From contig NZ_JACJPY010000002.1 of NCBI RefSeq assembly GCF_014696345.1, positions 62,001 through 126,000 of the forward strand: 64,000 bases of DNA. The letters run 5' to 3'. Below are positions 4,396 to 6,486 of this stretch, one piece after another; position 1 is the stretch's first letter; each line of letters opens with the position of its first letter. The notes under the pieces were generated by a model. That model saw nothing but the letters and a program-made list of their open reading frames with translations. It had not been told where the DNA came from and did not search any database. The stretch comes from Pseudanabaena cinerea FACHB-1277 (GTDB taxonomy: Bacteria; Cyanobacteriota; Cyanobacteriia; Pseudanabaenales; Pseudanabaenaceae). The position numbers and the translations under genes were made by a program.

Positions 4396-4797
4396 TTACT
4401 GAGGTTTTGCTGAACGTTTAGCCCTTGGCGATTTAGGATTTTGGGATTGTTTTGCAGAAAGCTGTTGTAATTTTTGGACTTGCTTGAGGGTTAGTCCTGT
4501 AAATTTGGTGACTAGATCAGGGGAAATATGATCATTGAGCATATTGATCGCAATTTGGCGGGTAGCTTTCGCTTCACCCTTAGCTAAACCCTGAGCCTCA
4601 CCTTGAGCGATGCCTTGAGTGATGCCTTGAGCGATGCCTTGAGCGATGCCTTCGGCTTTGCCCTCCAGTAAAATTTCTTGGTAAATCACGGATGTCTTCA
4701 TGATTTCGCTCCTTAAAAGTCTTTGGATGATTTCTTTGTTTAGGGCTATGCCCGATATTATCAGAAAAATGGGTTTAAAAACCCGTGCTTCTAGCAC
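4396..4797 (-). pseudogene. C-terminal fragment of Rpn-family nuclease, cut off by the TnpB element
   Basis: IALNKEIIQRLLRSEIMKTSVIYQEILLEGKAEGIAQGIAQG...; first 12 codons (MLEARVFKPIFL) come from the element's left end. Confidence 0.8.
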
Positions 4798-6083
4798 GGC
4801 TTTATATTAATTGTATCAATATGTCGCATCTTATGTTAGAATATACTACATAAGATTAGATAAATCCATGTTAGTCCTCGAAGCAAAACTAAAAGGCAAA
4901 ACAGAGCAGTACAACCTCATTGATGAGGCTATCCGTACTGCTCTGTTTTGTCGTAATAAGGCTTTGAGGTTCTGGATAGATAATCGCGGCGCTGACAGAT
5001 ATGACCTCAATAAGTTCATGGCTGTGCTTGCAAAAGATTTTGATTTTGCGAATAAATTAAACTCTCAAGCAAGACAATCAAGCGCTGAAAGGGCATGGTC
5101 AGGCATTGCCAGATTTTTTGATAACTGCAAGAAGAAAGTATCAGGCAAGAAAGGATATCCAAAATTTAAAAAACGTGGTCATTCCGTTGAGTATAAAACT
5201 ACAGGGTGGAAGCTTTCTGAAGATCGTAAATACTTAACTTTGACTGATGGTTTCAAAATTGGCAGACTCAAGCTAGTTGGCAGTCGTGACCTTAACTTCT
5301 ACCAGATAGAGCAAATTAAACGTGTCAGACTGGTAAAACGGGCTGATGGTTACTACGCTCAATTCTGTGTAGATGTTGACCGTAGAGAAGATATAGAACC
5401 AACTCAAACCACGATTGGTTTAGATGTTGGGTTGAACCACTTCTACACTGACTCCAAAGGTAAAGTAGTCGAAAATCCTAAATTTCTTAGAAAGTCAGAG
5501 CGTCAGCTTAAAAAGTTGCAACGCAAAGTTTCTAAGCGTAAAAAGGGATCGGCTAATCGGAGGAAAGCAATTAAGCGGTTAGCAAAAAAGCATTTGCAAG
5601 TAATTAGACAGCGTAAAGACTTTGCGGTAAAGACTGCAAGGTGCGTAGTTCGGTCTAACGACCTGATTGCCTATGAAGATTTGCAAGTGCGGAATATGGT
5701 CAAGAATCATAAATTGGCTAAGTCTATTTCAGATGCAAGCTGGTCTATGTTTCGAGATTGGGTTGAGTATTTTGGCAAAGTATTTGGCAAGGTCACGGTT
5801 GCAGTGCCGCCACAATATACAAGCCAAAATTGCTCAAATTGTGGAACAACGGTCAAGAAATCGCTGAGTGAGAGATCTCATCAATGTAGCCATTGCGGTA
5901 CGGTTTTAGACCGTGACCACAATGCTGCTTTGAATATCTTGGCTATTGGATTAAATAGGGTAGGGCATACCCAAATTTCTACGCCTGTGGAGAGTTCGAC
6001 CTCTGCCATTTAGATTTAGGTCTATTTGGTAAGTTGTCTCACTGAATCAGGAATCCCCGTCACTTCAGTGCGGGGAGTGTCAA
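4762..6083 (+). mobile_element. IS200/IS605-superfamily element carrying tnpB only (IS1341-like)
   Basis: Left-end hairpin CCGTGC-TTCTA-GCACGG (4783-4799), right-end hairpin CCCCG(T)CAC-TTCA-GTGCGGGG (6055-6075), no tnpA; joining the flanks at 4761/6084 restores the nuclease frame (..VAASTA|IISGIALNKE..). Confidence 0.82.
4868..6013 (+). CDS. tnpB: RNA-guided transposon nuclease TnpB
   Basis: RuvC motifs TIGLDVGLNHF, IAYEDLQV, LDRDHNAALNIL and zinc finger CSNCG...CSHCG. ORF track starts at 4811; family N-terminus MLVLEAKLKGK points to ATG 4868. Confidence 0.93.
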   Translation: MLVLEAKLKGKTEQYNLIDEAIRTALFCRNKALRFWIDNRGADRYDLNKFMAVLAKDFDFANKLNSQARQSSAERAWSGIARFFDNCKKKVSGKKGYPKFKKRGHSVEYKTTGWKLSEDRKYLTLTDGFKIGRLKLVGSRDLNFYQIEQIKRVRLVKRADGYYAQFCVDVDRREDIEPTQTTIGLDVGLNHFYTDSKGKVVENPKFLRKSERQLKKLQRKVSKRKKGSANRRKAIKRLAKKHLQVIRQRKDFAVKTARCVVRSNDLIAYEDLQVRNMVKNHKLAKSISDASWSMFRDWVEYFGKVFGKVTVAVPPQYTSQNCSNCGTTVKKSLSERSHQCSHCGTVLDRDHNAALNILAIGLNRVGHTQISTPVESSTSAI

Positions 6084-6103
6084 AGCTGTCGATGCGGCTA
6101 CAT
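5930..6103 (+). ncRNA. Predicted omega-RNA/reRNA: scaffold to about 6083, guide about 6084-6103
   Basis: Position at tnpB 3' end/right end as for TnpB guides; scaffold ends ..CGGGGAGTGTCAA, then AGCTGTCGATGCGGCTACAT. The 5' limit is approximate. Confidence 0.5.
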
Positions 6104-6486
6104 TACTTTGGACTTGTCGATCGCTAATATTTTCAATTTTTTGGGCGACTTGCCTTAATGTTTCTTCGGGATTATCGGTTTGAGATAGGGCGGCAAAGGG
6201 TAATAGTCCTGAATAGTTTTGAAATATGGCTGTTGGCTGTTCCCAGAGGCGAATTACATCGATAGTCCGCCATGCGGAAGGGAATATTTCTATTCGGCTC
6301 GGTTTGAAATTCGATGTGCAGGATTAGGTCTGATGCTTCGAGAAATATTACTGAGTCGGCACGGATCGGTTCTACCAAAAGCTCTGATGGTTCGAGTTTG
6401 GTTAATTCAATGGGTTTGCCCAATAGCCAACTGGCAAAGTCTGACGAAAAGCTTTCTGCGAGAAATTTACAGATATTGTCTATCAT
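6084..6486 (-). pseudogene. N-terminal and middle part of Rpn-family nuclease with internal deletion/frameshift, disrupted by the TnpB element
   Basis: MIDNICKFLAESFSSDFASWLLGK...LHIEFQTEPNRNIPFRMADYR, then another frame: VIRLWEQPTAIFQNYSGLLPFAALSQTDNPEETLRQVAQKIENISDRQVQSNVAASTA. Confidence 0.8.

What the first reader, a model, noticed from the sequence alone, without database searches (positions are those of the whole stretch)
4741..6110. TnpB-only element with base-level junctions; the predicted guide matches its own empty donor site
Seen: joining + strand ...CCCGATATTAT (ends 4761) to AGCTGTCGATGCGGC... (starts 6084) gives a continuous minus-strand frame ..NVAASTA|IISGIALNKEIIQRLLRSEIMK.., so a 1322-bp element is inserted with no target duplication. 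Left hairpin 4783-4799, right hairpin 6055-6075; TnpB keeps all three RuvC acidic motifs and both zinc-finger CxxC pairs. Known: IS200/IS605 elements insert without duplication, and TnpB uses a right-end-derived RNA whose guide is the flanking DNA, next to a left-flank TAM. Inference: guide about AGCTGTCGATGCGGCTACAT, TAM near ATTAT/TTAT, so an excised allele would be cut and the element retained. No tnpA, so mobility depends on one in trans.
Basis: partly seen in the sequence, partly recalled or inferred. Interest (0 to 1): 0.72.

Follow-up and report, generated by a model that had tools for sequence, protein, structure and literature searches.

The report
TnpB-only jumping gene, coding-start hairpin

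Summary
A 1322-bp element (4762-6083), without target duplication, splits a minus-strand Rpn-family gene. Orthologues in three same-genus genomes, beside the same pilin gene, keep the uninterrupted site ATTAT|AGCTGTCGATGCGG (1-3 mismatches in the 20-nt guide). In the host genome 18 of 20 further left ends follow TTAT and all 16 further right ends finish in TCAA. Left guides covary with targets across homologues (TTAT~AAAA, TTAC~AAAG, TGAC~CAAG). TnpB keeps D186/E270/D350 and both CxxC pairs. So it is an IS1341-type IS200/IS605 element; retention by donor-site cleavage is the published model, not a novelty. "No tnpA" holds for the element only: contig 111 has a tnpA+tnpB element with a nearly identical left end. 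The target gene also carries a separate 125-bp deletion. New: an 18-bp perfect stem in tnpB codons 10-28 (4895-4952), kept with compensatory changes in one TnpB clade (21 of 22 rows; synonymous-codon null mean z 2.4; second sample z 2.2) and absent from 52 other homologues (z 0.06). It is probably an mRNA-level brake or processing site; its function is untested.

The parts
4758..4761 (+). Target / presumed TAM TTAT (cleavage site CL)
   Evidence: Precedes 18 of 20 further left ends in the host genome and the ends of close homologues
4762..6083 (+). Whole TnpB-only IS200/IS605 (IS1341-type) element, 1322 bp, no target duplication
   Evidence: Ends shared with other copies; uninterrupted orthologues
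4777..4780 (+). Left guide GL = AAAA
   Evidence: Covaries with the target: AAAA with TTAT, AAAG with TTAC 6/6, CAAG with TGAC 5/5
4783..4799 (+). Left-end subterminal hairpin CCGTGC-TTCTA-GCACGG
   Evidence: Sequence; conserved in copies
4828..4856 (+). Inverted repeat ATCTTATGT/ACATAAGAT around an extended -10-like TGTTAGAAT; possible tnpB promoter/operator
   Evidence: Sequence; similar upstream stretches in several homologues. Inferred, not tested
4868..6013 (+). tnpB, 381 aa, intact RuvC triad and zinc ribbon
   Evidence: Pfam PF01385 and PF07282, NCBIfam NF040570 E 4e-83; ISDra2 TnpB alignment
4895..4952 (+). Coding-region hairpin, 18-bp perfect stem (4895-4912 with 4935-4952), tnpB codons 10-28
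   Evidence: Fold z -6.3; synonymous null z -4.8; covariation; clade restriction; second sample
5984..6083 (+). Presumed reRNA (omega RNA) scaffold overlapping the tnpB 3' end
   Evidence: Similar folds in close copies; sub-threshold Rfam RAGATH-18 match 5984-6053, E 0.15; right hairpin covariation
6051..6054 (+). Right guide GR = GAAT
   Evidence: Invariant in 20 homologues
6055..6075 (+). Right-end hairpin
   Evidence: Covariation
6080..6083 (+). Right cleavage site TCAA
   Evidence: Ends the right ends found in the host genome and in homologues
6084..6103 (+). Presumed guide AGCTGTCGATGCGGCTACAT (flanking DNA)
   Evidence: Position 3' of TCAA; the same DNA follows TTAT in empty sites
4396..4761 (-). 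3' part of the interrupted Rpn-family gene
   Evidence: TIGR01784 match below cut-off; orthologues L143-L145
6084..6486 (-). 5' part of the same gene, with a 125-bp frameshifting deletion near 6258
   Evidence: Alignment with L143; the same gap against many relatives

Best explanation
It is a non-autonomous IS200/IS605 (IS1341-type) element. A Y1 TnpA supplied in trans, most likely from the IS605-type element on contig 111, recognises its end hairpins and the guides AAAA and GAAT and moves it as single-stranded DNA to sites after TTAT. Shown: ends, target, empty site, guide-target covariation, intact TnpB frame, presence of the tnpA. Inferred from the published TnpB model: the 3' end of the tnpB transcript becomes an reRNA whose guide is the flank 6084-6103, and TnpB cuts the excised allele TTAT|AGCTGTCGATGCGGCTACAT so that repair from a sister copy restores the element. 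Added layer: the tnpB mRNA forms a strong stem at nucleotides 28-85 of the coding sequence, kept by compensatory and synonymous changes in one clade of cyanobacterial TnpBs. Most likely it limits TnpB output or marks an RNA processing site rather than acting on DNA, because G.U pairs are tolerated better than A.C mismatches; this last step is inference.
For: Ends and the TTAT/TCAA rule in host copies and homologues. Guide-target code. Empty orthologous sites in three syntenic genomes, one of which (G026) shows no TnpB homologue. Trans tnpA. TnpB integrity. Right-hairpin covariation. Coding hairpin: folding z, strongest window in 9 of 11 genes scanned, clade distribution, changes on both sides in 9 of 18 pairs, fixed-register synonymous null clade z 2.39 against 0.06 elsewhere, second sample z 2.24, wobble asymmetry. 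Donor-site cleavage model: PMC8612924. TnpB processing its own mRNA and an inhibitory mRNA region: PMC10278001.
Against: No expression, cleavage or transposition data. Trans-mobilisation by the contig 111 TnpA is judged from end similarity only, and its right end differs (GAATCACCGTCGCTTCAGCTCGGTGAGTGTTTCAA). Three hosts of close relatives showed no similar tnpA, though those assemblies may be incomplete. RNAalifold called no consensus structure for the coding hairpin alignment, and its outer pairs are poorly kept. Homologues are related, so pooled z values are inflated.
Confidence: 0.82

Rival explanations
1. The element is a recent fossil: TnpB looks intact only because the insertion is young, and nothing is cut or moved now.
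For: Only one full-length copy of this TnpB in the genome, alongside several decayed relatives; the host gene is already broken by a 125-bp deletion.
Against: Open 381-aa frame with all catalytic residues; many near-identical left ends in the genome imply recent activity of a TnpA with this end specificity; 83-93% identical copies in other genera and in viral contigs.
Confidence: 0.2
2. TnpB has been co-opted for a host role (for example an RNA-guided repressor) rather than element retention.
For: The guide lies in a multi-copy host gene family; two host paralogues have TTAT plus 3 mismatches in 18 guide bases.
Against: Nuclease triad intact, unlike TldR-type repressors (own knowledge); host paralogues mismatch at guide positions 4 and 7 or 4 and 10, near the TAM; the element is absent from the orthologous site in relatives.
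Confidence: 0.05
3. The coding hairpin is a by-product of peptide conservation (EQY...RTAL) and codon bias, not a selected structure.
For: Synonymous shuffles of the window gene still form 13.5 of 20 pairs; invariant columns coincide with conserved residues.
Against: Observed 18 of 20; clade mean z 2.39 with 52 relatives at 0.06; changes on both arms including amino-acid changes; second sample.
Confidence: 0.15
4. The coding hairpin acts as DNA, for example as an extra TnpA or replication-fork recognition structure.
For: IS200/IS605 transposition uses single-stranded hairpins; the hairpin region persists in several decayed or internally deleted copies.
Against: The stem is partly broken in some of those remnants; sense-strand G.U is tolerated and A.C avoided; sister TnpB elements with the same kind of ends lack it.
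Confidence: 0.15

Closest known systems
IS1341-type (TnpB-only) members of the IS200/IS605 family
   Same: tnpB alone, subterminal hairpins, insertion 3' of a short T-rich target, no duplication
   Different: Target TTAT with left guide AAAA; carries a coding-start hairpin
ISDra2 of Deinococcus radiodurans (TnpB structures 8BF8, 8EXA)
   Same: RuvC triad and zinc ribbon aligned (E 2.7e-38); reRNA from the right end; TAM equals target site
   Different: ISDra2 also encodes tnpA; TAM TTGAT; TnpB 408 aa against 381 here
IS608 (Helicobacter pylori)
   Same: Right guide GAAT, right cleavage TCAA, target-guide base code (own knowledge)
   Different: IS608 target TTAC with AAAG; here TTAT with AAAA; IS608 carries tnpA
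RAGATH-18 RNAs / IS607 TnpB reRNAs (PMC11061315)
   Same: CCUG/CAGG long-range pairing placed at the tnpB 3' end
   Different: Match below the Rfam gathering score (23.7 against 44.9 bits); associated with IS607 elements
IS200 tnpA 5' mRNA structure (PMC12594629; also cited in PMC10278001)
   Same: Structured 5' part of an IS200/IS605-family transcript
   Different: There in tnpA; here inside the tnpB coding sequence

Membership tests
IS200/IS605 family, IS1341 group | tnpB present, no tnpA inside the element | tested here: met
IS200/IS605 family, IS1341 group | Insertion 3' of a short target without target duplication | tested here: met
IS200/IS605 family, IS1341 group | Subterminal hairpins with guides that match the cleavage sites | tested here: met
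IS200/IS605 family, IS1341 group | Mobilised as ssDNA by a Y1 TnpA | not testable with these tools
   Candidate tnpA found; activity needs an experiment
TnpB RNA-guided nuclease | RuvC D/E/D and zinc ribbon | tested here: met
   D186, E270, D350, CxxC at 322 and 340
TnpB RNA-guided nuclease | Conserved structured RNA at the right end with the flank as guide | tested here: inconclusive
   Structure conserved; transcription not testable
TnpB RNA-guided nuclease | TAM-dependent cleavage of the donor joint | not testable with these tools
   Only the TTAT rule is shown
RAGATH-18 RNA family | Score above the Rfam gathering threshold | tested here: not met
   23.7 against 44.9 bits, E 0.15

The most novel reading that the evidence does not exclude
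A clade of cyanobacterial TnpB-only elements carries a conserved RNA stem inside the first 30 codons of tnpB that controls how much nuclease or guide RNA is made, or is cut out as a separate small RNA: a cis-regulatory device of TnpB that I did not find described.
Probability: 0.55. Interest if true: 0.55.

Novelty: new member of a known kind. Interest (0 to 1): 0.4.

Why it matters
The element is a clean natural test case for TnpB-driven retention: base-level ends, the empty site in relatives, a candidate trans TnpA and near-matching host paralogues are all identified. The conserved coding-start stem gives a testable handle on how a selfish element keeps an RNA-guided nuclease in check, and codon-optimised TnpB constructs would erase it.

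Tried and rejected
The inside of most multi-copy relatives could not be read, because contigs stop within them. Rfam at E up to 1 gave only the weak RAGATH-18 match and a microRNA model that merely sees the coding hairpin's inverted repeat. RNAalifold found no consensus on the coding stem, so a fixed-register count and a synonymous-codon null were used. A first wobble count included four wrongly oriented loci and was replaced. Self-targeting of host paralogues was considered and judged unlikely because of mismatches near the TAM. Paper searches listed no paper whose title or abstract start describes a conserved hairpin in tnpB coding sequence; only PMC10278001 was read for this, and the library is incomplete.

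Full report
Observation. The element runs 4762-6083 (1322 bp). A search of the host genome with it gave one full-length copy and 41 partial matches. Of 20 further left ends, 18 are preceded by TTAT with the base before that free to vary; the two exceptions (L034 TTGT, L045 TGAT) are diverged copies. All 16 further right ends finish in TCAA (L023 after a one-base shift) and are followed by unrelated DNA. The nearest homologues in other cyanobacteria show the same junction rule.

Empty site. The joined flanks match uninterrupted genes throughout the genus without a gap at the junction. In L143, L144 and L145 the gene lies beside the same pilin-like gene, so these are taken as orthologous; their junction reads GATATTAT|AGCTGTCGA.GCGGC with 1, 1 and 3 mismatches in the 20-nt guide. 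One of these genomes, G026, shows no TnpB homologue. The gene is an Rpn-family member by a sub-cut-off TIGR01784 match. The window's gene also lacks 125 bp near 6258, which shifts the frame, so it was broken twice.

Transposition chemistry. Left guides covary with targets across homologues: AAAA with TTAT, AAAG with TTAC (6 of 6), CAAG with TGAC (5 of 5), with a few departures such as L110, L021, L022, L030 and L138. This is the kind of target-guide pairing known from IS608 (own knowledge), and it supports the cut at 4761/4762. The right end has GAAT, a hairpin and TCAA; the hairpin keeps 96% of its pairs, with changes on both sides at 6 of 8 positions. The element has no tnpA, but contig 111 carries a complete element with tnpA (PF01797, E 5e-38), a tnpB frame of 395 codons, a left end 95% identical over 42 nt and target GTTAT. 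A 79% identical TnpA is in the Roseofilum host of L064; the hosts of L062, L065 and L067 showed none.

TnpB. 381 aa, PF01385 and PF07282 above cut-off, NF040570 E 4e-83; D186, E270 and D350 align with the catalytic residues of ISDra2 TnpB. Close copies are in Pseudanabaena (93%), Tolypothrix (87%) and Roseofilum (83%), and on viral contigs (90-92%), so the lineage moves between hosts. The presumed reRNA region folds similarly in eight close copies and weakly resembles RAGATH-18, from which reRNAs of IS607 TnpBs derive (PMC11061315, abstract).

Guide and self-targeting. The guide-equals-empty-site property follows from the published model, in which TnpB cuts the donor joint and repair restores the element (PMC8612924). 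Two uninterrupted paralogues in the host have TTAT and 3 mismatches in 18 guide bases, at positions 4, 7, 16 and 4, 10, 13. Cutting them would be costly, and mismatches near the TAM probably prevent it (inference).

Coding hairpin. Bases 4895-4912 and 4935-4952 form an 18-bp stem (one G.U) in tnpB codons 10-28 (fold z -6.3). Against synonymous-codon permutation within the same gene, folding z is -4.8, 0 of 200. A tree of 74 homologues places the carriers in one supported clade of 22 (96/89): 15 fold strongly (z below -3), six more weakly (z -1.1 to -2.6) and one, L069, does not. In a gap-free alignment 77% of cells pair, against 36-47% when slid; 9 of 18 pairs have changes on both sides; covariation is 0.245 against 0.137 shuffled, 0 of 500. 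With peptide and codon use held fixed, the clade has mean z 2.39 and the other 52 homologues 0.06. In a second sample, 17 homologues grouped by the clade's N-terminal residues gave 2.24 and 16 others 0.45; L208 looks identical to L064 there, so the sample is not fully independent. In 9 of 11 genes scanned the first window is the strongest. In the core, A.C cells fall by two thirds and G.U cells by about a quarter against the synonymous null, which favours a structure in the sense RNA. RNAalifold did not call it. I infer a regulatory or processing role. TnpB processing its own mRNA, and an inhibitory mRNA region in another TnpB, are reported (PMC10278001).

Verdict. The unexpected part is the hairpin, whose function is open.

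Noticed in passing
window 6258 (minus-strand gene 4396-6486): The interrupted Rpn-family gene lacks 125 bp relative to orthologues, an independent frameshifting lesion.
   Followed up: yes
window 4828-4856: Inverted repeat ATCTTATGT/ACATAAGAT centred on an extended -10-like box just upstream of tnpB; similar palindromic stretches precede several homologous genes.
   Followed up: partly
L016-L022, L025-L033, L041-L043, L047-L051 (host genome contig ends): Several further multi-copy families with nearly the same left or right ends; contigs stop inside them, so their contents are unknown.
   Followed up: partly
L023, L037, L039, L040 (host contigs 144, 13, 127, 139): Decayed or internally deleted relatives of this element, one about 480 bp with both ends.
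   Followed up: partly
host contigs C13:81920 and C136:79193 (L206, L207): Uninterrupted paralogues of the target gene with TTAT and 3 mismatches to the guide, possible off-targets.
   Followed up: yes
L209, L212, L226: TnpBs with an EFKL N-terminus fold a similar hairpin at the same place in a slightly shifted register.
   Followed up: no
L237, L238: 90-92% identical TnpB copies on IMG/VR contigs, from transport by viruses or from host DNA binned as viral.
   Followed up: no
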